26,564 bases of DNA from a virus, in the IMG/VR virus record IMGVR_UViG_3300025131_006154, positions 1-26,564 of that record; one strand, given 5' to 3'. The notes under the pieces are model-generated. The model saw only the letters and a program-made list of their open reading frames with translations. It made no database searches and was not told the origin of the DNA. Position numbers and translations under genes: made by a program. Positions 8,036-26,564 of this stretch are shown in pieces. The stretch's first letter is position 1; every line of letters begins with the position of its first letter.

Positions 8036-8064
8036 ATTCTACCCACTAGTAAACCTATTGTCTA
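8036..8064 (-). promoter_or_regulatory. sigma70-type promoter upstream of endolysin
   Basis: On the minus strand TAGACA (8059-8064, 5 of 6 to TTGACA) is followed by a 17-nt spacer and TAGAAT (8036-8041, 5 of 6 to TATAAT). Transcription would start about 10-15 nt before the endolysin ribosome binding site. The -35 box overlaps the last codons of the homing endonuclease gene, so the endolysin would not depend on read-through across it. Confidence 0.6.
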
Positions 8065-9182
8065 GCTTTTGCTTTCCGGTATTGTTTCTTCCGATATTCT
8101 CTCTGTTTTTGTAGTTCATTCTGGTGTCGATCAGATTTCAGATACTGTTGTCTTCGTTCACGTGTAAGGAGTTTTTGTTCTTGTTGATGTTCTCTTAACC
8201 TCAAAGTCGACTTGGTCAACATGCCACCATTCACTTTCCCGTCTTCGAGTTGTATTGTTCCGGGACCAGGACCCACCTCTTGAATCTTTTGGTCTACGAG
8301 ATCGACAGTCAGTTCCTCTTGGAATCCAATACGGATGAGATGAATGCCGAGTCGAGAACAAAGGTCTTCCTTTAACCGGTCAAGACCTTTGGCATGTTGA
8401 AAAGCCTCTTCCGACTTATGGAAATGAGAATTGAATCTAAAATGTTGTTCTCCGTCATACTCCCACCCTAAATTCAATTCAGGGACAAAGAAATCAAGCC
8501 TAAGTTTTTCCCCTACAAGGAATTGCTCCATCACTTTGTCAAATTTCTTATTAAGAAGATGGCCTAGTATCTCTTCTCCCCTAGACTTGCTTTTCTTGAT
8601 CTTTCTTGTCCATCCTCGGTAAGAACATGTACCTGATATCTGAGAAGGAGACGCGTTTAATTCAGTAGCAATATCAACGTAAGTAAACTTACCTAGAGAC
8701 GCCATAGATTCTATCGTATCTAGTTCTTTGTCAGTCCATCTACGGATAGACGAAGTAAGACCAAGCTGGATTAGCATGTAATGAATACCAGACTCTGTCT
8801 TGCTGAGAGCGATGGCCATTTCTTTATAAGAGGATCCAGAAAGTCGAAGTTGGATTAATTCGTTCTTCTCTAGATCAGTCCACCATTGGTCCTTCCCTAG
8901 CCCTAGGCTAGAAGCTTTAAATTGAATGGCGTCCTCTGATCGTTTGAGAGTTGTTCTCAATTCTTCATTAGATACAGAACTATAATGAGTCTTGAGAATA
9001 TGAATCTCTTCTGGAGACCAATAGTTCGCGTGAGTAGAAATTCCCTCTTGTTTGAGAATGCAATAAAGACTACCAACCGGCTTGTCAATCTCCCTTGCGA
9101 TTGTTGCGATTGGTTTGTCCCCGTAGTCTTCGAGGAGTTGATTAACTTGTTTTTGAGACCATCTTTTGTATTTGCTTTTCAT
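8055..9182 (-). CDS. EDxHD (Vsr-like) homing endonuclease with HTH repeats
   Basis: Four helix-turn-helix units of the same style stand in a row at about 5-47, 54-94, 100-140 and 148-192, each with a Trp-Ser/Thr start (RWSQKQ, YWSPEE, WWTDLE, RWTDKE). Residues 200-290 form a Vsr-like nuclease domain: D230-F-F-V-P, W240-E241-Y-D243-G-E-Q-H247 and D268 in LDRLKEDLC, ending in HLIRIGF. This is the EDxHD signature of phage homing endonucleases. The tail from 325 to 375 is a highly charged coiled coil (RERRQQYLKSDRHQN). ATG 9182 is chosen because it lies 4 nt after the upstream stop; the frame extends 22 codons further without a ribosome binding site. The intruder is free-standing, not in an intron that can be seen. 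Confidence 0.88.
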   Translation of the reverse strand: MKSKYKRWSQKQVNQLLEDYGDKPIATIAREIDKPVGSLYCILKQEGISTHANYWSPEEIHILKTHYSSVSNEELRTTLKRSEDAIQFKASSLGLGKDQWWTDLEKNELIQLRLSGSSYKEMAIALSKTESGIHYMLIQLGLTSSIRRWTDKELDTIESMASLGKFTYVDIATELNASPSQISGTCSYRGWTRKIKKSKSRGEEILGHLLNKKFDKVMEQFLVGEKLRLDFFVPELNLGWEYDGEQHFRFNSHFHKSEEAFQHAKGLDRLKEDLCSRLGIHLIRIGFQEELTVDLVDQKIQEVGPGPGTIQLEDGKVNGGMLTKSTLRLREHQQEQKLLTRERRQQYLKSDRHQNELQKQREYRKKQYRKAKARQ

Positions 9183-9186
9183 ATGG

Positions 9187-9606
9187 TTAACCCAACAGCA
9201 CAAATACAAGTCCCTTTGTAAGCGGAAAAGAATCATAAATTCGATCAAGTGCTTTTCTGCTTACAAGAGAGGCGCAGTCTACAATAATCATATCTACCTG
9301 TTTGCCACGAAATTTTTTGAGTGAGATAGATCGAGTATCACTTGTTCGACCATGACATTCGAGCGGACAAAGATTTTTATTCGGTGCGATAAAGACCGAA
9401 TTAGGATTCATAAATAATTTATTGGCTATCGTGGTATGACCAGATGAGCGAGGAAGTCTCAAATGGATTGTAAGGAATTCCTTTTTGAGAGATTTCTCGT
9501 CAAGGTGTTTAAAAAAGAAAGAGAAGGTAGGGTCGGTTTGTAAATCTCGGACATACTTGACCATATCTCGAATATAAATTTCAAACTTATCGCGTGGATC
9601 TGACAT
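9187..9606 (-). CDS. small P-loop-like protein with altered Walker A
   Basis: Residues 48-62 (HLRLPRSSGHTTIAN) look like a Walker A loop in which the key Lys of GKT is His58 (SGHTT). Residues 104-112 (VDMIIVDCA) resemble Walker B. At 139 residues the protein ends soon after a third strand (GLVFVLLG), much shorter than helicases or terminases, and its stop is 4 nt from the start of the homing endonuclease. It may be a complete small family or an ATPase truncated by the insertion. ATG 9606 has AGGAGA upstream. Nucleotide hydrolysis should not be assumed. Confidence 0.65.
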   Translation of the reverse strand: MSDPRDKFEIYIRDMVKYVRDLQTDPTFSFFFKHLDEKSLKKEFLTIHLRLPRSSGHTTIANKLFMNPNSVFIAPNKNLCPLECHGRTSDTRSISLKKFRGKQVDMIIVDCASLVSRKALDRIYDSFPLTKGLVFVLLG

Positions 9607-16550: not shown

Positions 16551-16922
16551 CTAGGCGAATAGGAGAGGCCAACCCCACTTGATAATGGTACCCAATAGGG
16601 CAGTGGCGGCTACTCCAATGCCTCCCCACATGAGGCCGGTCTTCCAGGACAGCTTGGCCGTCTTCTTCTCGACAGTATCCAACCGCTCTCCATGTCCTTC
16701 GATCCTGTCGTCCTGTTTGTCAAGACGCTTCTCTACCTTCGACCCAAAGCTTTCCATAGCCTTAGTGGTCGCCGCGAACCCATCCTCAACCAACACCTTG
16801 AGATCCTCGTGTTCCTTTGCGTTCTGCACTTTGTACTCCTCAAAGTCTTTAGCATCACGACGGTCGCTTTGCTCGAGTAGGGCCATACGGGTAGGTAGGT
16901 CTTCGTTAGCTGATGGGGCCAT
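16551..16922 (-). CDS. coiled-coil protein with C-terminal membrane anchor
   Basis: Residues 12-90 are a charged helix with heptad patterns (LLEQSDRRDAKDFEEYK, KRLDKQDDRIEGHGERLDTV); residues 97-121 (GLMWGGIGVAATALLGTIIK) are a membrane segment, and the protein ends GWPLLFA. This is the architecture of XhlA-type holin helpers and other tail-anchored phage proteins. ATG 16922 follows GGAGG by six bases; it overlaps the GMD gene by 17 nt. With the gene after it, it may form a membrane pair. Confidence 0.7.
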   Translation of the reverse strand: MAPSANEDLPTRMALLEQSDRRDAKDFEEYKVQNAKEHEDLKVLVEDGFAATTKAMESFGSKVEKRLDKQDDRIEGHGERLDTVEKKTAKLSWKTGLMWGGIGVAATALLGTIIKWGWPLLFA

Positions 16923-17895
16923 GCTCCGCCTCCAGGAGGGCCAAATCGTTGACAACCATCTCTTCGATCAGGTCCTTGAATGTGGTACGAGGTTCCCATC
17001 CCAGGTCTTCCTGGATAGCTGAGTAGTTGCCGATGAGAACGTCCACCTCTGTTGGGCGGAAGAAGCGGGGGTCAACTTCCACATAGTTTTTCCAAACAAG
17101 TCCGACACGGCTAAAGGCCACATCGCAACACTCTTCCACGGAGTGTGTCTCCCCGGTAGCTAACACATAGTCCTTGGGTTGTGGTGCGTCCTCCATCATC
17201 ATGATCATACCACGGACGAAGTCCTCTGCATGGCCCCAGTCTCGCATAGCAGCCAGGTTCCCCAGGTAGAGCTTCTTCTGCATGCCACGACGAATCTTAG
17301 CAACTGCCATCGTGATCTTACGAGTCACGAAGTTGGACCCACGACGGGGTGATTCGTGGTTGAAGCAGATGCTATTCACCGCGAACATCTTGTAGGACTC
17401 CCGATAGTTTACGGTGTTCCAGTAACCAGCGAGCTTGGACACACCATATGGAGACTTCGGATAGAAAGGGGAACTCTCGTCACACTTATTGGAAGTGACT
17501 CCTCCGAAGAGCTCGCTAGTGGAGGCCTGAAGGAAGCGAGTGTGAATCCCTGAGAGCCTGATTGCCTCTAGACACCGTAGAACACCAATGCCATTAACAT
17601 CCTGCGTGAACTCAGGCTGGTCAAACGATGTCCCAACGTGGGACTGAGCAGCCATGTTAAAGAAAAGGTCAGGGGATGTGGTCTTGCAGAGGTGGGATAG
17701 GCAAGACTGGTCTGTGAGGTCGCCCTCTACGACTTCTAGATTGTCGCGGCCCTCGAGGTGCGCAGAACACCCTAAGTCCATCCCCTGACTAGAGCGGCGG
17801 ATCATACCATACACTTTGTATCCTTTATCGAGCAGCTGGTCTCCAAGATAGGAGCCATCTTGCCCGCGAAAGCCTGTGATGATTGCAGTTTTCAT
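16906..17895 (-). CDS. gmd: GDP-mannose 4,6-dehydratase
   Basis: The 329-residue protein is a short-chain dehydrogenase of the extended type: the NADP loop TGFRGQDGSYL (7-17), MAAQSHVGTSF, the catalytic set T126/E128 (STSELFG) and Y150-x3-K154 (YGVSKLAGYW), FNHESPRRGSNFVTRKI at 178-194, and RDWGHAEDFV near 218-227. Together these fit GDP-mannose 4,6-dehydratase, which makes GDP-4-keto-6-deoxymannose, the precursor of L-fucose, D-rhamnose and perosamine. No GDP-fucose synthase or other second enzyme is seen here, so the host or a gene outside the window would finish the sugar. ATG 17895 has AGAGGT upstream. Length is slightly below the usual 340-370. Confidence 0.9.
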   Translation of the reverse strand: MKTAIITGFRGQDGSYLGDQLLDKGYKVYGMIRRSSQGMDLGCSAHLEGRDNLEVVEGDLTDQSCLSHLCKTTSPDLFFNMAAQSHVGTSFDQPEFTQDVNGIGVLRCLEAIRLSGIHTRFLQASTSELFGGVTSNKCDESSPFYPKSPYGVSKLAGYWNTVNYRESYKMFAVNSICFNHESPRRGSNFVTRKITMAVAKIRRGMQKKLYLGNLAAMRDWGHAEDFVRGMIMMMEDAPQPKDYVLATGETHSVEECCDVAFSRVGLVWKNYVEVDPRFFRPTEVDVLIGNYSAIQEDLGWEPRTTFKDLIEEMVVNDLALLEAEHGPIS

Positions 17896-17939
17896 GTTAC
17901 CTCTAGTCTTGTAGTGTATTACTACGGGAGATTACTTCT

Positions 17940-17967
17940 ATTTTACACGGGTCAAGAAGAGAATCAA
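17940..17967 (-). promoter_or_regulatory. candidate promoter for gmd
   Basis: On the minus strand TTGATT (17962-17967) is followed by a 16-nt spacer and TAAAAT (17940-17945, 5 of 6 to TATAAT). It sits in the 68-nt gap before gmd and starts within the stop region of the gene upstream. The same -35 hexamer, TTGATT, is used in the candidate promoter at 19473-19501. Confidence 0.4.
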
Positions 17968-18623
17968 GGAGCAATTCTAACCCCTTGTAGAAAATTGAAC
18001 AAGCTCATTGACTTATCCCGCCATGTAGCGTCAAGGCGAATCAGCTTGTCTACGATCTCCTGTGGTTGTGTGGCGAATGAAACCTGAAGAATACCAGCCT
18101 TCACTCTATTAGCGTATGTGTCTTGAATCTCTCGACCTGCACGAAGACTCGTGATGAAGTCCAACATGCCCCCAATGTCCACCCACGACTCTCCGAAGAC
18201 AGCCATCATATCCTCTTTCTCATAGGTGTGGTGGGGCAGAACCGTCATCTTGCTGTTATCGAATGAGCGCTCACAAGCATAGAGAATAGCGGCACTTGGC
18301 CAGGTAGGAGCGGGGATGCCTCCCCAATTTCCAGTGGAGCCACCATCAATTCGTTTGGCTACATCATCAACCAAGCAAGTATCAAGCAGCCACATAAAAT
18401 TAGAGAGACGAATAATCCCCGAGGCATCGCCCATGTTGTCGGGGATCTGTTGGTGACCAACAGGGATATCCACGCCCTTCGGGAGAACCGGAGGGAGGTG
18501 ACCACTTGGTACATAGATGTACTGGTTAGTGTATCCTGCCCTATACAGGAGAGCTAGACTCTCACTGTTCCAGAGAAAAGGATGGAAGTGGGTTGTATGT
18601 ATGAGAAGGGTTGACTTGTCCAT
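17964..18623 (-). CDS. unknown protein in glycan cluster, 219 aa
   Basis: The product begins MDKSTLLIHTTHFHPFLWN and has no recognised fold. Several Trp, His and Gly-Asn pairs (GGSTGNWGGIPAPTW) suggest a carbohydrate-linked enzyme, but this is only impression. Start: ATG 18623; a GTG six bases upstream in frame is also possible. Neither has a good ribosome binding site, and a perfect hairpin ends 1 nt before the ATG. Its position between gmd and the sulfotransferases argues for a role in glycan synthesis. Confidence 0.6.
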   Translation of the reverse strand: MDKSTLLIHTTHFHPFLWNSESLALLYRAGYTNQYIYVPSGHLPPVLPKGVDIPVGHQQIPDNMGDASGIIRLSNFMWLLDTCLVDDVAKRIDGGSTGNWGGIPAPTWPSAAILYACERSFDNSKMTVLPHHTYEKEDMMAVFGESWVDIGGMLDFITSLRAGREIQDTYANRVKAGILQVSFATQPQEIVDKLIRLDATWRDKSMSLFNFLQGVRIAP

Positions 18624-18624
18624 G

Positions 18625-18637
18625 CCCACAATGTGGG
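18625..18637 (-). promoter_or_regulatory. hairpin abutting a start codon
   Basis: CCCAC-aat-GTGGG is a perfect inverted repeat of 5 bp with a 3-nt loop (6 bp if the loop is counted as one base). In the minus-strand mRNA it ends 1 nt before the AUG at 18623 and contains the alternative GUG start. There is no clear ribosome binding site, so the structure may influence which start is used. Confidence 0.25.
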
Positions 18638-18661
18638 TCTTCTAGGAACTATGTCAATAGG

Positions 18662-19453
18662 CTATTCCATTTCGAGAGAGAGAAAACTATAGAGAGGCAC
18701 GAGATCTTGGAGATCTTCGGGTTGAAGAGTGAAGAGATTGGCGTCACCTTCGCAAGAAGGAAGGGGGATCTCTTTGTCCGAAAGGACAACAACATAGAAG
18801 TCATCAAGAATGTCCGGAGCATCCCAATCGGCAAGCTTATAAGAAGGTACCTCAATGCATCCAACTGGCTTGGCTGATTTAGCTACAGCGGAGAGCTCCT
18901 CTGCACGAATCACAAGTGGGTTGCGTCCAGCTGTACGGAGAGATTTCCCGGTTGAGGAAAAGAGTGTGCCACGTAGCTTGGGGGCAAGGTCTTCCTGGCA
19001 GAGGATCAGGATCTTGCTTGGCACCTTACGCTCGACAACAGGCTCTTCCGGGAGCGGCTCAACCTCAAGCGCATGAGGATACTCATCTGAGACAGGAGTA
19101 GGCTCTTCGGGAGCGAAGTCTTCAATAGCAGGCACCATTGGAGCGGGGTGGGGTGGGCCTAGCTTCAGGAGGAGCTTCTCGACTGAGATAATGTTGTAGT
19201 TGTCCAGCTTCTCGGTCAGGCGCTTGACCTTGCGCAAGTAGGTCTCATCAGTTGAGAGACCTGTTACACGGTAGAACTTCCAGTCGGGACGCCTAAACCA
19301 TCCGCGCCAAGAAGCAAGATCGTCTGTAGAAACAACAGCGAATACTCCTTCCTGAGGCAACTTGCCAAGGCCGTCACAGGTTACACGTGTATGCTTCGGT
19401 AGTTTGATCTGGATATAATCTGCTTCGGTATCAAAGATGTATAGCTTAGGCAT
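18662..19453 (-). CDS. unknown two-domain protein with Pro/Glu linker, 263 aa
   Basis: Residues 1-98 (MPKLYIFDTEADYIQIKLP ...) and 145-263 (SKILILCQEDLAPKLRG ...) look like two alpha/beta domains, separated by a flexible linker of about 45 residues rich in Pro and Glu (PAPMVPAIEDFAPEE). No catalytic motif was recognised. ATG 19453 has GGAGAG upstream, and a candidate promoter lies 20-50 nt before it. It may start a transcript separate from the sulfotransferase genes. Confidence 0.65.
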   Translation of the reverse strand: MPKLYIFDTEADYIQIKLPKHTRVTCDGLGKLPQEGVFAVVSTDDLASWRGWFRRPDWKFYRVTGLSTDETYLRKVKRLTEKLDNYNIISVEKLLLKLGPPHPAPMVPAIEDFAPEEPTPVSDEYPHALEVEPLPEEPVVERKVPSKILILCQEDLAPKLRGTLFSSTGKSLRTAGRNPLVIRAEELSAVAKSAKPVGCIEVPSYKLADWDAPDILDDFYVVVLSDKEIPLPSCEGDANLFTLQPEDLQDLVPLYSFLSLEME

Positions 19454-19472
19454 TATTCACTCTCCATTGGTA

Positions 19473-19501
19473 ATCTTACCATGACATAAGTTGCTAATCA
19501 A
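19473..19501 (-). promoter_or_regulatory. candidate promoter before the 263-aa gene
   Basis: On the minus strand TTGATT (19496-19501) is separated by 17 nt from TAAGAT (19473-19478); the three bases before it are TGG, an extended -10 element. Each hexamer matches the consensus at 4 of 6 positions. It overlaps the last codons of the third sulfotransferase gene. Confidence 0.4.
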
Positions 19502-20285
19502 TTGGGTAACCTAGCCCAGTGTGTTCATTACGAGCGATTCTAACAAATGCCGCTTTCTCTTCAGGTGTCCAGCTGAGAGATCTCTTGTTGAACGACGTAT
19601 CCTTTGGAAAGGAGGTGTGCCGCCCGGCCTTGATAATCTTCTGTGATTTCTCAAACTTAGCCATGATAGCAGGTCGATCGATATCATAACCAACACGTCC
19701 GAAGATGCTAGCTAGCACTACGTCCGGTTCCTTCACCAGGTCCTCGAACTTATAGATGGAGTAGAGACCAGGGTACTCTTTGACACAGTCGAGTGCAACT
19801 CGAGCCTTGTTGCGGTATGACATACACAAACGGAGGAAGTAGTCATTAGCGTCGGCCTCGACTAGCTTCTGTTCTACGCCTCCCTTGAGCTTCCGGAAGG
19901 ATTCAATCTGGTTCCGTCCATCACGAAGTAGTTGTACGATCTTCCAACCATCATCAATATAGGGCCTGACCTCAGCTGGTCCGAATCTATTTTGACTGTT
20001 ACCAGCGTAGGGACCTGGTACGAAGCGGGATTCCAGACTTCCCCACCAGTCCCCCAGATGAGTCATAAGGACCATGTCTTCTTCTACGTTCTTCACTACA
20101 TCTAGGACAGCACCACTATGAGTATGAGTAGCAAGAAGAGGGGGTAGTGTCGGAAGATGATAGAACGTCTCTCCGGGGTTAGCCTTCTGGGACGGATCAA
20201 AGAACTGAGGGGTGTGTTGGCACAGTGTCTGGAAAAGAGTAGAGCCAGCGCGGTAATTAAGAAGGACTAGAAGTTTATTGGGCAT
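19494..20285 (-). CDS. PAPS-dependent sulfotransferase (third of three)
   Basis: Residues 9-18 (LNYRAGSTLF) form the 5'-phosphosulfate-binding loop and 119-130 (LLRDGRNQIESF, with R121 and S129) the 3'-phosphate-binding motif of sulfotransferases, which move sulfate from PAPS to a hydroxyl or amine. YKFEDLVKEP and the final EHTGLGYPI also fit the family. ATG 20285 has GGAGAG upstream and overlaps the glycosyltransferase gene by 11 nt; an in-frame ATG 78 nt upstream is rejected. The acceptor is probably a glycan given the neighbours. It is not closely similar to the other two sulfotransferases, so they were probably acquired separately or diverged long ago. Confidence 0.85.
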   Translation of the reverse strand: MPNKLLVLLNYRAGSTLFQTLCQHTPQFFDPSQKANPGETFYHLPTLPPLLATHTHSGAVLDVVKNVEEDMVLMTHLGDWWGSLESRFVPGPYAGNSQNRFGPAEVRPYIDDGWKIVQLLRDGRNQIESFRKLKGGVEQKLVEADANDYFLRLCMSYRNKARVALDCVKEYPGLYSIYKFEDLVKEPDVVLASIFGRVGYDIDRPAIMAKFEKSQKIIKAGRHTSFPKDTSFNKRSLSWTPEEKAAFVRIARNEHTGLGYPID

Positions 20286-21378
20286 TCGCTCTCTCCAGGA
20301 ACTCTTTGATGGTATGAGATTCAGACTCAAAATCAACAACGTCGTTAAATCTCTCGATAACATTGGTATGTATCTCTTGATATCTCTCTGTGTAATAGAT
20401 CAGATCTTTCACGACCTCATCTTTTGTACTGGATGAGACATCGATACATGTCTTACCATGCTCTAGTAGAGCACATGAGATGTTACCTCGCAAGTCATTT
20501 AGGTTAGTAATAATGGGTCTGCCACACGCAAAGGAATTATGGATAATGTGACCGTAGGATTCTCCCCCGGGCTTAATGTGCCAGGTCCAACCAGAGGCCT
20601 TGATCATAGTAGCGAGAAGACCTGTGTCTGCAATAACACCAGCTTGGGGACCACGAAAGTTACCCATGGATGTGAAGGTCCAGTCATCTGGTAGGGAACA
20701 AGCAACCTCTCCCATGAGTTCCATAGAGTCAGGGAAATGTACCCAGCTGACAACGTTCTTCGGATGCTCAATGGGAGTGGGACAGAAGACATCAAGATCG
20801 AACTCCTGGTGGTAGCTCACCCAGTTGATATCAGGCATACCTCCCCGAGGAGGGGAGTGGAGCATCACGTTCTTGGCTCCAGATGGGGGTGTCCAGGGGC
20901 CATCACTTCCTACTCCACCAAGATGAACAATATGTGGACAGCCTTGTTCCTTGGCGAGACGCTTGAATGGTTCATAGTGCTGTGGCATGGACGACAGGAC
21001 AAAATCGAACTTTGTCTGACGGAAGAGACCAAGAGTAATGCCCCGTTGAAGAGGGGCCCAGTGCTTACTCTTATCTTCTATACGATAAATACCTGTTTCA
21101 CCAAGAGTAACGGGACCAACCCGAAGCATCTCTACGAGATAGCGGGCCCACCCCGTATCCCCAAGTGGAGGCAATTCCGATAAAAGGGACTCGGCTTCTC
21201 CGTCTGTGGTGGAGAGATAGCATTCGGTCACCGGGCTCTCAGCGTAGACATCCCAATACCCTTCATCCTTCCAACCCATACCGATTGGTCGGTAGAGCTC
21301 AATCCCCAGCCTCTTCTCGAATAAGAGAAAGAAGGAATGGAACAGGTCAAAATGATGTAGGTCTGTCAGAATCTTCAT
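20275..21378 (-). CDS. GT-B-like glycosyltransferase (paralog 2)
   Basis: The 367-residue protein has, near residues 258-292, GWTWHIKPGGESYGHIIHNS followed by ACGRPIIT, the donor-binding region of GT-B glycosyltransferases; the usual E-x7-E pair is altered. The N-terminus (KILTDLHHFDLFHSF, LYRPIGMGW) is very like that of the gene at 22147-23199: 28 of the first 45 residues agree without gaps. The sugar donor cannot be read from sequence. ATG 21378 overlaps the sulfotransferase gene by 32 nt, and its own stop overlaps the next sulfotransferase, so the three are tightly linked. Confidence 0.75.
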   Translation of the reverse strand: MKILTDLHHFDLFHSFFLLFEKRLGIELYRPIGMGWKDEGYWDVYAESPVTECYLSTTDGEAESLLSELPPLGDTGWARYLVEMLRVGPVTLGETGIYRIEDKSKHWAPLQRGITLGLFRQTKFDFVLSSMPQHYEPFKRLAKEQGCPHIVHLGGVGSDGPWTPPSGAKNVMLHSPPRGGMPDINWVSYHQEFDLDVFCPTPIEHPKNVVSWVHFPDSMELMGEVACSLPDDWTFTSMGNFRGPQAGVIADTGLLATMIKASGWTWHIKPGGESYGHIIHNSFACGRPIITNLNDLRGNISCALLEHGKTCIDVSSSTKDEVVKDLIYYTERYQEIHTNVIERFNDVVDFESESHTIKEFLERANAQ

Positions 21379-22147
21379 GGATCTCTACTTCGCCTAGATT
21401 AATATTAGTTCTAGAGTGAGTGTGTGCCCAGTCCCATAACAAACTGTCGTGGTGGTTCATGCCCCAAATCTTATCTCGAAGCCCACTACCAACAGGTTCG
21501 CGGGCTGAAGGGTTGCACTTTTTCCCCACGAATCTCTTGTGTTGGCCAGGCACTCCGAACTTCTTTTTGAGGATTGGCCAACAAGTTGAAATCTCATGTT
21601 GCAAACCAATGTACGAGAAATAATGGAGATTGGCAATAGCATGTTTCAGATGTGCACCAGATAGCTCAGGTGACTTGCCAACCAAGTCGGCTCCCTTGAA
21701 GTACATAGGGACACCAGAGAATAACCGCACCTGGTAGTCGTAGAAGAGATTCGTCCAGCACTCACGCAAGAGTCTATTGCTTGGTCCATCAAGTACGACA
21801 TCAAGAGGGTTGTCTCTCATAAAGACATGGAGGGGATGCGCATGACACTTGGGGTCCCTCACATAGAAGTAGGTCGACAGCACTCTGTCTACCGGATCTC
21901 TCAGTGTGGTCATGAGGTAGTAGGGTTTAGTAACGATCGAGTGAACGTAGTCGAATGTCTTCTTATCACGTAGGTGGCCAGAGAAGAAGGTAATACCATC
22001 CCGGTCCCGCTGGTCAATGTAGTCTTTGTGTTCCGCATTGAGGTGCCAGGAGTAAAAGGACTTAGTCGTCTGCAGGCGGTGGTGGAGGGGGTTCCTGATC
22101 GAGGTCCCTGCACACTTGAACGGGTGAATGAAGACTAGGTTCTTCAC
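21347..22147 (-). CDS. sulfotransferase, family 2 type (second of three)
   Basis: Residues 6-17 (FIHPFKCAGTSI) match the 5'-PAPS loop of Sulfotransfer_2 and heparan 2-O-sulfotransferase-like enzymes (typically HIPKxGGTS). SGHL at 56-59 and TLRDPVDRVLSTYF at 81-94 (R83, S91) give the GH and 3'-phosphate motifs. These enzymes sulfate polysaccharides. The start is a GTG at 22147 sharing bases with the previous TAG (TAGTG), with GAGGA about ten bases upstream. No alternative ATG fits the N-terminal motif. Confidence 0.87.
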   Translation of the reverse strand: MKNLVFIHPFKCAGTSIRNPLHHRLQTTKSFYSWHLNAEHKDYIDQRDRDGITFFSGHLRDKKTFDYVHSIVTKPYYLMTTLRDPVDRVLSTYFYVRDPKCHAHPLHVFMRDNPLDVVLDGPSNRLLRECWTNLFYDYQVRLFSGVPMYFKGADLVGKSPELSGAHLKHAIANLHYFSYIGLQHEISTCWPILKKKFGVPGQHKRFVGKKCNPSAREPVGSGLRDKIWGMNHHDSLLWDWAHTHSRTNINLGEVEIHEDSDRPTSF

Positions 22148-23199
22148 TAGATTAGGTTCCTCACGAATCGTTCGATCTTCTCTCCTTCCTTCCCGAAGTC
22201 CACAACGTCACAGAAGCGCTTGTAAGCCGCTGCGCACATGGTTGCGTGTCTGGTAGGCTCACTCCAATACAGCAGCTTGTCGGCTACCTGGCGGGCTGAG
22301 AGACCATCGATATTAATACAGGTGACATCATCTTCAAGTAACTCGTTCCCTAGCTTCGAGGTGTAGAAATGACGAGCTATTACTGCTGGTCTCCCACAAG
22401 CATAGGAAGAGAAGAGGGTGTGGCCGTAACCATCTCCCTCTGGCTTGTAGTGCCAGGTCCATCCTGACTTAATTATCTCAGGAGCCACCTCGACTGCTCC
22501 TGCTAGGGCTCTGTCCATCCCGGCACCATATCTATTGGACTCCCATCCAGGAAGGAACTTCATCACCTGCCTGAAGAGTTCAGGGGCCTTCATGTAATGG
22601 ATATAGGAATTGATCGCAGTGCTCGTAGTTGGGGGCGTGTACTTGAATAGCTCCTGGTCGAACTCCTGATGGTAGTAACAGACCTTGGTGTTATGGGGTA
22701 GATGGAATCCCGCTGTTGAAGCAAGAACGTTATTCACTCCCCCTTGATGGCCCCATGCGTTCCCGATCTGGAAGATGTGTTTGCAGCCAGGCTGGCACTC
22801 CTGGATGAGTCGGTTGAAGGGACCAATGTGAGCAGGGATAGAAGACACGACGATACCGAACTTCATCTCTTGGAACTTGGGCAGGGTGATAGCCTTGTAG
22901 GTGGAGGCGAAGCCCTTGTCGTCGACAAGATAGATCCCGTCTCCCTCGTCTGTTAGAAGGAGATTCGGTAGCTCGTTCTTCCTGAAAGGCTTACCCTCCA
23001 TACCACGAGGCACCTTCTTTGCCTGGTCTAGCGAAAGGTACTGTTGGGCCGTTCCTGGGTGAGGGAAGACATTCCAGTATCCCTCCTTATACCACTCCAT
23101 TCCGATAGGACGATATAGGGTATGGCCGAGGCGCTCTTCAAACAAAAGCTGAAGTGATTTATAGAGAGCTTGGTGGTGGAAGTCGGCTAGGATGTTCAT
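22147..23199 (-). CDS. GT-B-like glycosyltransferase (paralog 1)
   Basis: The 350-residue paralog of the gene at 20275-21378 starts NILADFHHQALYKSLQLLF ... LYRPIGMEW and has GWTWHYKPEGDGYGHTLFSS followed by ACGRPAVI near the C-terminus. The region between the ends differs more than the two ends. The pair may add two different sugars, or the same sugar to different acceptors. ATG 23199 forms an ATGA overlap with the upstream stop, and its stop is shared with the next GTG. Confidence 0.77.
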   Translation of the reverse strand: MNILADFHHQALYKSLQLLFEERLGHTLYRPIGMEWYKEGYWNVFPHPGTAQQYLSLDQAKKVPRGMEGKPFRKNELPNLLLTDEGDGIYLVDDKGFASTYKAITLPKFQEMKFGIVVSSIPAHIGPFNRLIQECQPGCKHIFQIGNAWGHQGGVNNVLASTAGFHLPHNTKVCYYHQEFDQELFKYTPPTTSTAINSYIHYMKAPELFRQVMKFLPGWESNRYGAGMDRALAGAVEVAPEIIKSGWTWHYKPEGDGYGHTLFSSYACGRPAVIARHFYTSKLGNELLEDDVTCINIDGLSARQVADKLLYWSEPTRHATMCAAAYKRFCDVVDFGKEGEKIERFVRNLI

Positions 23200-23807
23200 A
23201 GGTAGCGCTCTCTATACTCTGCTAGACTCACACCCTGGAGTTGCTCTCGGATGTACTTCTGGGAGGAGGTAGACATAGTGTCCTTGTAGTTACCAGGTTT
23301 CCCTGATCTCTTGTTAGTATATCCAGCACTTACTTTTGTCTCAATAGCCTTAATCATAGCAGTGTCTAGATTATTTTCTACTCCCAGAATATCAGGAATG
23401 TTATACAGGAAGTGAGGGTCAAAGGCGTCATTATAATGAAGGAACCTCAAGTGATGTCGTTTCTTGAGGACAGAGATGACTCCAAGGAAATCTCTAACGC
23501 GCTTGACTCCAAGGTCACTGCGTATAAAGGGATCCAATTCTATGCCCAAGCCATATTGCTTCCGACAATAGAACCAATAGGAATTGATGAGGGCCTCGCC
23601 CTTTCTTAGAAGAACAGTAATATTGTCTGAGCTCCTTAGGCGATGCGTGAAGTTCTGTATGGCTGTTACGTTCTTGGGTGCATACCTTTCGAAACCAATA
23701 TGGGAGAATCTTACTGTATCTTTGATCCCGTGAAGTGCGCAAAAGTGTTTGACCCTTTGTCTCTGCCAGGTCCGGCCACTGCGCGGGTAGGAAAGAAAAT
23801 AGTTCAT
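23196..23807 (-). CDS. PAPS-dependent sulfotransferase (first of three)
   Basis: Residues 6-14 (SYPRSGRTW) are a classic 5'-PAPS loop of cytosolic-type sulfotransferases; VLLRKGEALINSYWFY at 65-80 (R68, S76) is the 3'-phosphate site, and RSGKPGNYK at 167-175 is the conserved C-terminal loop (usually RKGxxGDWK). At 203 residues it is shorter than typical members (250-300). It overlaps the UGD stop in the form TAATG and the glycosyltransferase start as ATGA. Confidence 0.88.
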   Translation of the reverse strand: MNYFLSYPRSGRTWQRQRVKHFCALHGIKDTVRFSHIGFERYAPKNVTAIQNFTHRLRSSDNITVLLRKGEALINSYWFYCRKQYGLGIELDPFIRSDLGVKRVRDFLGVISVLKKRHHLRFLHYNDAFDPHFLYNIPDILGVENNLDTAMIKAIETKVSAGYTNKRSGKPGNYKDTMSTSSQKYIREQLQGVSLAEYRERYL

Positions 23808-24592
23808 TAACTCTTGTTCCCTAGTCTCTTGTTACTGGCAAGCAATTCCTTGATGAATCCTGGTGAATAACCAGCTGCTTCGCATGCTTGAATAATACCG
23901 TTGATATCCTTAGGCAAACACTTGCCTCCAAACGGACTCTCGTTGTCAGCGAAGTACATGGTGTGTGACTTGTTGATCCGTGGGTCGAGTAACCACCCCT
24001 CGCGCACCTTGTGAAAGTCCGCGCCAAGTGTTTCACAGATTTTCTGCATCTCATATGTGAAGACAACCTTGGTGCCAAGGAACGCGTTCTCCATATACTT
24101 AATGATCTCTGCCTCTATAGCAGACACCTGATAATACACCTTGGTGGGCCCTGCTAATCTAGAGACGATTTGAGTTACAGCGGAGGTGTCTTCTGGGTTA
24201 CCACCAAAGACGTGGAAAGGTTCGTTGGCTGCGTTAGAGGCAAAGTTGTGACCAGGGTCGTAATCTGGTTCACCGCAGTACTCAGGTGAGAATACAATTC
24301 TCTTTCCGTACTTATTTATGAGCCGATCAGTAGTGCCTGGAGAAACAGTAGACTTGATAAGAATCAGTGGGGTATCAATCCATCCCACGACTTGCTCTAC
24401 GATAGACGTGTCACAAGCTCCGTCCTCTCCCATCGGTGTCGGGACACAAACAACAGCCATGTCACACTTGTTGATGTCAGCCTCCATACCAAGGCCCTTC
24501 GGACCATCAAACACGAAGACTTCATACTTAGACATGAAGAAGTTGCACATAGCCTCACCAACATAGCCATAGCCAACAATTCCAATTTTCAT
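23807..24592 (-). CDS. short UDP-glucose/GDP-mannose 6-dehydrogenase
   Basis: The NAD loop GYGYVG (7-12), VPTPMGEDG (50-58), STVSPGTTDRL (81-91), EIIKYMENAFLGTK (162-175, with K165 and N169) and the catalytic Cys225 in FGGKCLPKD are all present: this is the nucleotide-sugar dehydrogenase core that oxidises UDP-glucose or GDP-mannose to the uronate. At 261 residues it lacks the C-terminal domain of usual members (about 390-430 aa), which binds the nucleotide. It may be a shorter phage form acting on another substrate or an incomplete enzyme. The N- and central domains show no broken frame. ATG 24592 has AGGAG upstream. Confidence 0.85.
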   Translation of the reverse strand: MKIGIVGYGYVGEAMCNFFMSKYEVFVFDGPKGLGMEADINKCDMAVVCVPTPMGEDGACDTSIVEQVVGWIDTPLILIKSTVSPGTTDRLINKYGKRIVFSPEYCGEPDYDPGHNFASNAANEPFHVFGGNPEDTSAVTQIVSRLAGPTKVYYQVSAIEAEIIKYMENAFLGTKVVFTYEMQKICETLGADFHKVREGWLLDPRINKSHTMYFADNESPFGGKCLPKDINGIIQACEAAGYSPGFIKELLASNKRLGNKS

Positions 24593-24601
24593 TAGGGACT
24601 C

Positions 24602-25624
24602 CTAAAAACGAACCGGCTTAGCTGGGTCGAGGCCTTTTCTTCTCATAGAAGAAGCTAACTGGATGTTAGCCTCACTCTGAGTTTTTGATTCTCCCAGATA
24701 CACTGGGTTAGAAGCAGCAGGCTTGTAAGGCGCAGTAAGCGGAAAAGAAAAACGAGGAGGCAATTTGACTCTCTCGTTACGTGCCAGCCCCATCTTATCA
24801 TCTGCCCACGCACGTCCATAGAAGGCTTCTGTGAACCCGCCTATGTAGTCATATGTTGTCTTCGTCATAATATGATGGCCATGGTATGAAGGGGTCATCC
24901 GTCTCTTTCCTTGCTGACCCTTGTTGGCTAGTTTTGTAGCAAGTTGGCCTACCTTGTTAAAGAAGCTTGGATCAGCCACAAGGATGTGGAATGAGTTCTT
25001 GATGTCACTTACATACAGGTCTTCGATATTTGTCGAACGGCTTTTATCTCTACCATGGTGCTTGCTAGGAGGACAGGGGATGCCTGGAGGGAGATTGGTT
25101 AGTTTCACCCCACGTAGTGCGTTCGGCTTACCATAGAATAGTTCTCTCTTCTTTTGTTTCTTAATAAACTTATCTATCTGGTCTAGTTTGTAAAAATAGA
25201 TATAGTCACAGGGAGAGACGATCAGGTTGTCACCAGTTGAAATAGATACAGCCATGTTATATAGCCAGCCAGAGGAGAGCCAAAGAAAGGTCTTTGATTC
25301 GTCGAAGAGCTCTCCAGCTTCATAGGCATCTACGTCTGCCGTTAGTTCTTTACGAAACTGAGGAGTGAAAAAGCTGTAGCGCCCATAATAACTCAACATC
25401 TTTCGTAGGTACTGAATAGTGTTGGCCTTGGTGTTCCTGGCAACCTTCACGAATGGGTACTGCTTTTTGAGCTCATCAAAGTCCTTGCGTGAATCGTCAC
25501 AGTCCCGATTATCGTGAGTAATACAAAGTTCAAACTCATAACCGGGATTATGCAAGGCAAGAGCATCAGCGAACGCCTTCACATTTAGGAAGGAATCCAT
25601 TGCGCATGTGCAGACACTAATCAC
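24602..25624 (-). CDS. GT-A (family 2-like) glycosyltransferase
   Basis: The 340-residue protein opens with ISVCTCAMDSFLNV, then ITHDNRD; GDNLIVSPCDYIYF (131-144) holds a DxD-like metal site, and YIGGFTEAFYGRAWADDKMG (260-279) is the acceptor region typical of GT2/galactosyltransferase domains (GGFDExFxGWGxEDxD). The start is a GTG at 25624 with GAGAAG upstream; the N-terminal motif starts right there, so no ATG further in would leave it whole. The donor sugar is unknown. Confidence 0.8.
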   Translation of the reverse strand: MISVCTCAMDSFLNVKAFADALALHNPGYEFELCITHDNRDCDDSRKDFDELKKQYPFVKVARNTKANTIQYLRKMLSYYGRYSFFTPQFRKELTADVDAYEAGELFDESKTFLWLSSGWLYNMAVSISTGDNLIVSPCDYIYFYKLDQIDKFIKKQKKRELFYGKPNALRGVKLTNLPPGIPCPPSKHHGRDKSRSTNIEDLYVSDIKNSFHILVADPSFFNKVGQLATKLANKGQQGKRRMTPSYHGHHIMTKTTYDYIGGFTEAFYGRAWADDKMGLARNERVKLPPRFSFPLTAPYKPAASNPVYLGESKTQSEANIQLASSMRRKGLDPAKPVRF

Positions 25625-25625
25625 T

Positions 25626-25895
25626 CTACCACTTCTCGGGCTCTTCTACACAGTAGCGCTCATTGCTCCGCTTTTCTAGCTTGGCGGCATAGTCGGGATT
25701 TGCTTTCCACCAATCTGCATCCCACTGTTTGCTGTTTGCTGTCAGCTTACGCTGCATCTTCTTTGCCATCAGTTCACAGAGAGCTAGCTTACGACGGATA
25801 GTCAGATCGTGTTCATTATCGCCCTGGGCGAGATCGTTGATCTCTCTTGGTACTTCACAGATAGTTCTCTTGGGGTACGCGCCTTTTAGACTCAT
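25626..25895 (-). CDS. unknown small protein, 89 aa
   Basis: The product MSLKGAYPKRTICEVPREIND... is helical and basic with Trp-rich C-terminal part (WDADWWKANPDY). No family was recognised. ATG 25895 has a good AGGAGA upstream. It lies between the possible methyltransferase and the glycosyltransferase, without a role that can be read. Confidence 0.65.
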   Translation of the reverse strand: MSLKGAYPKRTICEVPREINDLAQGDNEHDLTIRRKLALCELMAKKMQRKLTANSKQWDADWWKANPDYAAKLEKRSNERYCVEEPEKW

Positions 25896-25904
25896 ATTCT
25901 TCTC

Positions 25905-26564
25905 CTATAGTAGGTGTGTTGGTGTATTGTCGTCGCCAGTGAACACAGAACCAGCTGTCATGAATGGTTTAATAGACTTGAAGAGTTTGGCATGCCAAAC
26001 GTTATCATGGATGGCATCTTCGTAGAAGTAGTCGATCTTCCCACGGAAAAAGAGTTGCTGCCGGTACTCTTTGTCTTTAACGATTGAGTCGGTCACTTTG
26101 TAGCAATCGTCGTTGATCCACAACCATCTTTTCTGTGCAACAGGATGGTCCATAAGTTCCATGCACCACTTATATTTTTTCCAGTAACGGTCTACTCCCC
26201 ACCAATACAATTCGTTGTAATCCTCGCATGCTCTCACGGCTGGAGGTGCAATGGGCATGTCGACAGTCACCAGGTAGGCGTCGTTCTTAACACACCACTT
26301 AAGAAGCTGGACTGTGGTGCCACCAAAGCCATATTCACAGAGCATGAGGGGTCTGCGCTTCATCTGTAGTACACGATCAATCTGTCGAAGCAGGGGTCGG
26401 TTGGTCGCCGTGTCCTTCACAAGATCTTCATAGAATGCGTCAAGCGATGAAACCTCGCTATCAGGCATAGCAAAGAGCTCGTGCCAGGAGCGAGTTTTGA
26501 TCTGCTCTGTAGAATTGTAGAGGTTCTCGCGGGCCTTAGGGTCCATTCCCTTGTCGACGATTTT
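25905..26564 (-). CDS. possible class I methyltransferase-like protein (5' cut by window edge)
   Basis: The frame is open from the right edge to the stop at 25905. CEYGFGGTTVQLLKW (70-84 from Met 26546) recalls the glycine-rich loop of Rossmann methyltransferases of the Methyltransf_24 type, and LVTVDMP (92-98) the following strand with an acidic residue; FTGDDN is near the end. The ATG at 26546 has AAGGGA directly against it, too close to be a normal ribosome binding site, and the frame stays open for six more codons (KIVDKG), so the true start may lie outside the window. SAM-binding is inferred and weak; the location suggests sugar or glycan methylation. Confidence 0.5.
   Translation of the reverse strand, partial: KIVDKGMDPKARENLYNSTEQIKTRSWHELFAMPDSEVSSLDAFYEDLVKDTATNRPLLRQIDRVLQMKRRPLMLCEYGFGGTTVQLLKWCVKNDAYLVTVDMPIAPPAVRACEDYNELYWWGVDRYWKKYKWCMELMDHPVAQKRWLWINDDCYKVTDSIVKDKEYRQQLFFRGKIDYFYEDAIHDNVWHAKLFKSIKPFMTAGSVFTGDDNTPTHLL

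What the first reader, a model, noticed from the sequence alone, without database searches (positions are those of the whole stretch)
17964..26564. Phage-borne sulfated-glycan cluster with three sulfotransferases
Three PAPS-type sulfotransferases with clear 5'- and 3'-phosphate motifs lie within 4.3 kb, next to two GT-B-like and one GT-A glycosyltransferases, a uronate-type dehydrogenase and, just downstream, GDP-mannose 4,6-dehydratase, all on one strand. Single sulfotransferase-like genes occur in some phages, but three alternating with glycosyltransferases beside nucleotide-sugar enzymes looks like a pathway for a sulfated polysaccharide. It could decorate virions or mask or change the host surface. 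The motifs are seen; the pathway is inference.
Basis: partly seen in the sequence, partly recalled or inferred. Interest (0 to 1): 0.75.

Follow-up and report, generated by a model that had tools for sequence, protein, structure and literature searches.

The report
Phage operon for sulfated glycans
An uncultivated bacterial virus carries a tightly packed set of genes in which three different sulfate-adding enzymes alternate with two sugar-adding enzymes, which suggests that it builds a sulfate-decorated sugar coat, most likely on its own particles or otherwise on its host's surface.

Summary
In 19494-23807 (minus strand) ST1-GTB1-ST2-GTB2-ST3 overlap end to start, inside twelve same-strand genes (16906-26564, gaps of at most 68 nt) that include GDP-mannose 4,6-dehydratase. 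ST2 and ST3 are sulfotransferases by profile evidence. ST1 is probable: motifs, residue spacing and predicted fold fit, but beyond the 5'-phosphate motif its sequence signal is weak. The three belong to different subfamilies. The two GT-B proteins are paralogs (36-37% identical) with a confident GT4-like GT-B model. The 'uronate' dehydrogenase lacks its C-terminal domain; the 'GT-A' protein could not be confirmed. No flippase, polymerase or membrane protein lies in the run, so a polysaccharide pathway is not supported; a short cytoplasmic glycan is likelier. The GT-B family recurs in 37 uncultivated viral contigs, in some beside capsid and head-tail genes; two further viral lineages have a sulfotransferase directly upstream of it. 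In Paenibacillus and Cohnella the same family sits with an ST2 relative and an adenylylsulfate kinase. Best reading: a phage glycan-decoration operon with three sulfation steps. Virion protein is the favoured acceptor, host surface the main rival; neither is shown. A new variant of phage glycosylation islands.

The parts
25905..26564 (-). possible SAM methyltransferase, first gene of the run, open at the contig end
   Evidence: weak Methyltransf_24 match, E 0.014, below cut-off; same-strand, 9 nt from the next gene
25626..25895 (-). small protein of unknown function
   Evidence: ORF in the run
   Evidence: phrog_1721 galactosyl transferase E 0.006 over 31 residues only; 33-35% identical homolog in the L015 glycan cluster; no PDB support
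23807..24592 (-). short UDP-glucose/GDP-mannose dehydrogenase-like protein without the C-terminal domain
   Evidence: PF03721 and PF00984 only; PDB UGDs align to residues 34-255; similar short relative in L044, 38% identical
23196..23807 (-). ST1, probable Sulfotransfer_1-type sulfotransferase
   Evidence: YPRSGRTW, H55, R68-x7-S76; 27.6 bits to a phage Sulfotransfer_1 protein; model Z 13.8 to SULT1C3
22147..23199 (-). GTB1, GT-B fold (GT4-like) glycosyltransferase
   Evidence: model pLDDT 89; Z 24.0 to TarM, 22.5 to BshA
21347..22147 (-). ST2, Sulfotransfer_2-type (HS2ST/HS6ST-like) sulfotransferase
   Evidence: PF03567 at cut-off; profile hit to heparan sulfate 6-O- and 2-O-sulfotransferases
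20275..21378 (-). GTB2, paralog of GTB1
   Evidence: 36-37% identity over the full length
19494..20285 (-). ST3, Sulfotransfer_3-type sulfotransferase
   Evidence: PF13469 E 0.005; 4gox and tyrosylprotein sulfotransferases; homolog beside GTB in L015
18662..19453 (-). unknown protein of the run
   Evidence: no family hit
17964..18629 (-). unknown protein of the run, faintly like an L015 cluster protein
   Evidence: BLASTP E 4e-4 over 33 residues in a single comparison
16906..17895 (-). GDP-mannose 4,6-dehydratase (GMD)
   Evidence: PF16363 E 1.2e-115; PDB GMDs E down to 2e-98

Best explanation
A phage-encoded glycan-decoration operon. Cytoplasmic GT4-like glycosyltransferases (GTB1, GTB2, perhaps the 24602-25624 protein) add sugars to an acceptor, using nucleotide sugars that GMD and possibly the short dehydrogenase help supply. 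Three PAPS-dependent sulfotransferases of three subfamilies then sulfate different positions of the product; a possible methyltransferase may add a further modification. PAPS and the remaining precursors come from the host. The product is most likely a short sulfated oligosaccharide on a virion protein, giving the particle a negatively charged sugar coat. Shown: gene arrangement and overlaps, GT-B fold of GTB1, GMD identity, sulfotransferase membership of ST2 and ST3 (ST1 probable), association of this GT-B family with sulfotransferases elsewhere. Inferred: enzymatic activities, order of steps, acceptor, purpose. (A sulfated glycan of any kind: about 0.75; on a virion protein: about 0.45.)
For: Overlapping gene block ST1-GTB1-ST2-GTB2-ST3; sulfotransferase evidence; GT-B fold; GMD. 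Sulfotransferase directly upstream of the same GT-B family in L003/L017/L038 and L015. GT-B family with an ST2 relative and APS kinase in Paenibacillus and Cohnella. GT-B gene beside head/tail genes in L005, L048 and L049. No membrane-spanning protein in the run.
Against: ST1 rests largely on one motif. The GT4 EX7E motif is altered to D-x7-N/S in this GT family. The dehydrogenase is truncated, the GT-A call unconfirmed, no PAPS-making enzyme is present. The cluster is not always in the virion module of relatives and occurs on bacterial chromosomes. No structural gene lies in this fragment, and a third Paenibacillaceae cluster shows no sulfotransferase.
Confidence: 0.5

Rival explanations
1. 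The same enzymes modify a host surface glycan (teichoic acid, LPS, capsule or S-layer glycan) during infection, to block superinfection or change the cell surface.
For: Same GT-B family in chromosomal glycan clusters of Paenibacillus and Cohnella with a sulfotransferase and APS kinase; GTB1 resembles TarM and HepE; cluster outside the virion module in several related viral contigs.
Against: Relatives with the genes beside head/tail genes; no export or membrane component in the run.
Confidence: 0.3
2. The enzymes glycosylate and sulfate modified DNA bases to protect the phage genome.
For: T4 alpha-glucosyltransferase is among the GT-B fold matches; some relatives lie near genes that look like replication and DNA-methyltransferase genes (read by eye).
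Against: No base hydroxymethylase or similar enzyme was recognised in the window; the fold match is generic (other GT-B enzymes score higher); bacterial clusters with a sulfotransferase point to glycans.
Confidence: 0.05
3. One or more of the three proteins is not an active sulfotransferase (ST1 a motif coincidence, or degenerate copies), so fewer than three sulfation steps exist.
For: ST1 has no family hit and its match depends mostly on the 5'-phosphate motif, which also occurs in LamG-like phage proteins. ST3 is below the Pfam cut-off.
Against: In ST1 the motif sits at an N-terminal strand-loop-helix, and H55, R68-x7-S76 and the predicted fold all fit. The ST3 two-member profile finds only sulfotransferases.
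Confidence: 0.15

Closest known systems
Glycan gene cluster of Moumouvirus australiensis and Cotonvirus japonicus (PMC10117803)
   Same: Viral cluster with glycosyltransferases, nucleotide-sugar enzymes and a sulfotransferase; the authors propose sulfated virion sugars
   Different: Giant virus of amoebae; one sulfotransferase plus its own SAT/APS kinase; the window has three sulfotransferases and no PAPS enzyme. The published proposal is itself not validated by experiment
Virion glycosylation by phage-encoded glycosyltransferases in mycobacteriophages such as Che8 (Freeman et al. 2023, as cited in PMC11256854)
   Same: Phage-encoded glycosyltransferases that decorate capsid protein
   Different: No sulfotransferases reported in the passage read; different gene families were not compared here
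Chromosomal glycan clusters of Paenibacillus prosopidis and Cohnella luojiensis (L045, L047)
   Same: Two paralogs of the same GT-B family with a Sulfotransfer_2 relative of ST2; adenylylsulfate kinase close by
   Different: Bacterial chromosomes, more glycosyltransferases, own APS kinase, one sulfotransferase; function unknown
Single sulfotransferase genes in phages of OM43 bacteria and cyanobacteria (PMC10580990)
   Same: Phage-borne Sulfotransfer_3 genes
   Different: Single genes, function stated to be unclear; not described as interleaved with glycosyltransferases

Membership tests
PAPS-dependent sulfotransferase (ST2, Sulfotransfer_2) | Score at or above the curated family cut-off and 5'/3'-phosphate motifs | tested here: met
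   22.0 bits against a cut-off of 22; KCAGTS and R83-x7-S91; heparan sulfate sulfotransferases by joint profile
PAPS-dependent sulfotransferase (ST3, Sulfotransfer_3) | Score above the curated family cut-off | tested here: not met
   17.6 bits against a cut-off of 27; motifs R121-x7-S129 and RAGSTLF present; only sulfotransferases found by the two-member profile
PAPS-dependent sulfotransferase (ST1, Sulfotransfer_1) | Sequence similarity beyond the 5'-phosphate motif | tested here: inconclusive
   masked ST1 keeps only 8.6 bits to its best relative, though ranked first of 49; predicted fold fits, on an alignment that holds known sulfotransferases
PAPS-dependent sulfotransferases | PAPS binding and sulfate transfer | not testable with these tools
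   needs expression and assay
GT-B glycosyltransferase, GT4-like (GTB1) | GT-B fold | tested here: met
   pLDDT 89; Z 24.0, 2.9 A over 287 residues to TarM
GT-B glycosyltransferase, GT4-like (GTB1, GTB2) | EX7E catalytic motif of GT4 | tested here: not met
   D-x7-N/S at the position I take as equivalent (the equivalence is my reading of the alignment)
GT-A glycosyltransferase (24602-25624) | Profile or structural match to a GT-A family | tested here: inconclusive
   only a 31-residue PHROG match, E 0.006; nothing in Pfam, NCBIfam or the PDB
UDP-glucose 6-dehydrogenase | NAD, central and C-terminal UDP-binding domains | tested here: not met
   NAD and central domains only, 261 aa
GDP-mannose 4,6-dehydratase | Full-length family match | tested here: met
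   PF16363 E 1.2e-115, PDB GMDs; the TIGR01472 equivalog score of 388 is below its cut-off of 415
Surface polysaccharide (Wzx/Wzy or ABC-exporter) locus | Flippase/polymerase or exporter in the cluster | tested here: not met
   no predicted membrane span in any of the twelve proteins; the contig is a fragment

The most novel reading that the evidence does not exclude
A tailed phage builds a multiply sulfated oligosaccharide on its own virion proteins, with dedicated sulfotransferases of three subfamilies interleaved with paralogous glycosyltransferases: a programmed sulfated-glycan coat on a bacterial virus, and an explanation for orphan phage sulfotransferases.
Probability: 0.35. Interest if true: 0.75.

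Novelty: new variant of a known kind. Interest (0 to 1): 0.52.

Why it matters
The function of phage sulfotransferases is stated to be unclear in the literature (PMC10580990). Here three of them overlap with glycosyltransferase genes, and the same glycosyltransferase family is found with sulfotransferases in other viruses and with a sulfotransferase plus APS kinase in two bacteria. This gives a concrete, testable role: sulfation of a phage-built glycan. A sulfated virion coat would affect surface charge, adsorption and recognition, and would extend virion glycosylation in bacterial viruses from sugars to sulfate esters.

Tried and rejected
Single-sequence back-translation scans for ST1, ST2 and GTB1 in viral contigs found nothing, nor did tblastn in the phage collection for ST1, ST2 and GTB1 or for three relatives; the ST3 hit there (E 0.9) is not significant. 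A scan with the ST3 alignment found no further relatives. A motif-only test for sulfotransferases was rejected: SYPRSGxTW also occurs in LamG-like phage proteins, and shuffling the rest of ST1 keeps most of its score. hhalign of the ST1-group profile to ST3 and ST2 was weak (probability 36% and 4%). Pfam sulfotransferase searches over the 37 viral records missed the L015 case, so absence there is not evidence. Promoter-like sites are at chance level; terminator-like sites are mildly above chance and were not interpreted. A universal virion-module location was rejected. A third Paenibacillaceae genome with the GT-B family shows no sulfotransferase or APS kinase in its 18-kb stretch, so the association there is two of three. 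The window's possible methyltransferase shows no BLASTP similarity to that of L003.

Full report
What the window is. The 26,564-base window is the whole of a linear virus record. Its other genes are phage-like: primase-helicase, PhoH-like protein, DNA-repair-type exonuclease, uracil-DNA glycosylase family protein, Cas4-like nuclease, Holliday junction resolvase-like protein and an amidase endolysin. The primase-helicase is only distantly related to known phages (no record covers 80% of it, all below 60% identity), and the cluster has no nucleotide match in 50,697 phage records. No structural gene was recognised in the window, so it is a fragment of an uncultivated phage whose host is unknown.

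The observation. Twelve consecutive minus-strand genes run from 26564 down to 16906 with gaps of at most 68 nt. In the core UGD-ST1-GTB1-ST2-GTB2-ST3 each start overlaps the preceding gene's end (by 1, 4, 1, 32 and 11 nt), which suggests translational coupling (inference).

Are the three proteins sulfotransferases? ST2 reaches the Sulfotransfer_2 cut-off exactly and hits a PHROG named Galactose-3-O-sulfotransferase. Two relatives in Firmicutes pass the Sulfotransfer_2 cut-off clearly, and the joint profile finds heparan sulfate 6-O- and 2-O-sulfotransferases; that profile leans on the two Firmicutes members. ST3 is sub-threshold in Pfam (E 0.005), but its best PDB match is a sulfotransferase with both motif regions aligned, and the profile with its L015 homolog finds only sulfotransferases. 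ST1 had no sulfotransferase hit in any library. A motif scan of viral contigs gave phage sulfotransferases to compare with; ST1 ranks them above the LamG-like proteins that share the motif, the best being a Sulfotransfer_1 protein (27.6 bits). A control showed the weakness of this: shuffling all of ST1 except its first 16 residues leaves a mean of 22 bits against the sulfotransferase profile (25.3 for the intact protein), and masking those residues leaves 3.5 bits (8.6 bits to the best relative). What supports ST1 beyond the motif is H55 at the position of the catalytic His (position known from SULT enzymes, aligned), R68-x7-S76 and the predicted fold (pLDDT 75, Z 13.8 to SULT1C3), though the fold was predicted on an alignment that holds known sulfotransferases. 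I hold ST2 and ST3 as secure and ST1 as probable.

The other enzymes. GTB1 and GTB2 have no glycosyltransferase hit in Pfam, PHROGs or NCBIfam but are paralogs, 36-37% identical. With 35 family members the GTB1 model is confident (pLDDT 89, pTM 0.88) and is a GT-B fold nearest TarM, BshA, MshA and HepE, with the protein glycosyltransferases SdgB and GtfA also listed. The EX7E motif typical of GT4 appears altered to D-x7-N/S, so the enzymes are GT4-like by fold. The 24602-25624 protein is conserved in one other viral glycan cluster, but no profile or PDB match confirms GT-A. GMD is certain. The dehydrogenase has NAD and central domains but no C-terminal domain; a similarly short relative sits in the L044 glycan cluster, so the short form recurs, with unproven activity.

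Context from relatives. The two-member GT-B alignment found 37 viral loci; the family alignment found only eight loci among 84,980 bacterial and archaeal genomes, and tblastn found none in the phage collection. L003, L017 and L038 (apparently one virus type) carry sulfotransferase-GTB-GMD in direct succession. L015 carries GMD, a methyltransferase-like protein, a homolog of the putative GT-A and a homolog of ST3 directly upstream of GTB. In Paenibacillus prosopidis and Cohnella luojiensis two GTB paralogs lie near a relative of ST2 and an adenylylsulfate kinase, the enzyme that makes the sulfate donor PAPS (established biochemistry). In Cohnella the sulfotransferase lies between the two GTB genes, though on the other strand. 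Only 21 of 297 genomes of that family have a Sulfotransfer_2 match, against 2 of the 3 with the GT-B family. By a hypergeometric count from those numbers p is about 0.014, before considering that the genes lie within a few kilobases. This is post hoc but independent of the window's own layout.

Virion or host surface? In L005, L048 and L049 the GT genes lie upstream of head-tail adaptor, neck and tail genes, and in L005 downstream of the major head protein. Another phage, L100, has a clear Sulfotransfer_1 gene near the end of a cluster with methyltransferase-like and sugar-enzyme genes, just upstream of genes that look like head/tail genes (the flanking genes were read by eye, not profiled). 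These placements favour virion decoration. On the other hand several relatives have the GT genes between DNA-polymerase-III-like and RecA-like genes (read by eye), and bacterial chromosomes have them apparently without phage genes. No cluster protein in the window has a predicted membrane span, which speaks against a complete surface polysaccharide pathway. I put virion protein first and host surface second.

Known systems. The nearest published parallel found is the giant-virus cluster with a sulfotransferase and a SAT/APS kinase, proposed to sulfate virion sugars and not validated (PMC10117803). Phage-encoded capsid glycosylation is reported for Che8-type mycobacteriophages (as cited in PMC11256854; the original paper was not held). 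Single phage sulfotransferases are known, with function stated to be unclear (PMC10580990). Three sulfotransferases of different subfamilies interleaved with paralogous glycosyltransferases was not found described in the searches made here, which cover open-licence papers only.

Verdict. A real cluster, a new variant of phage glycosylation islands; a sulfated-glycan function is likely, the acceptor uncertain.

Noticed in passing
L015 5382-9998 and 11711-12484 (IMGVR_UViG_3300038361_000164, 210 kb): Mosaic stop-codon use: six glycan genes, the ST3 homolog among them, carry 3-9 in-frame TGA codons each, several of them aligned with Trp, while flanking genes (GMD, GTB, ribonucleotide reductase-like) have none and use TGG; one neighbour ends in TGA. 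No tRNA in the 21 kb.
   Followed up: partly
L053-L110, for example L056 9719-10411: The sulfotransferase-like string SYPR[ST]GxTW recurs in LamG-like phage proteins (LDA..SYPRSGTTWxDLSG..NNG), a trap for motif-based annotation.
   Followed up: partly
L066 7072-7701 and L092 3073-3729 (IMGVR_UViG_3300010430_000003): Two sulfotransferase-like genes within about 15 kb of one 210-kb viral contig, in a region with tail-sheath-like genes.
   Followed up: no
L044 11232-11996 and window 23807-24592: A recurrent short UDP-sugar dehydrogenase-like protein (about 255 aa) without the C-terminal domain in glycan clusters.
   Followed up: partly
L048, L049 (contigs binned with Omnitrophota and Gottesmanbacteria genomes): Phage-like contigs with glycosyltransferase genes directly upstream of head-tail genes in MAGs of poorly known phyla.
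   Followed up: partly
window 8055-9248: Protein that combines a phage D5-like transcriptional regulator match with a homing-endonuclease-like C-terminal half.
   Followed up: no
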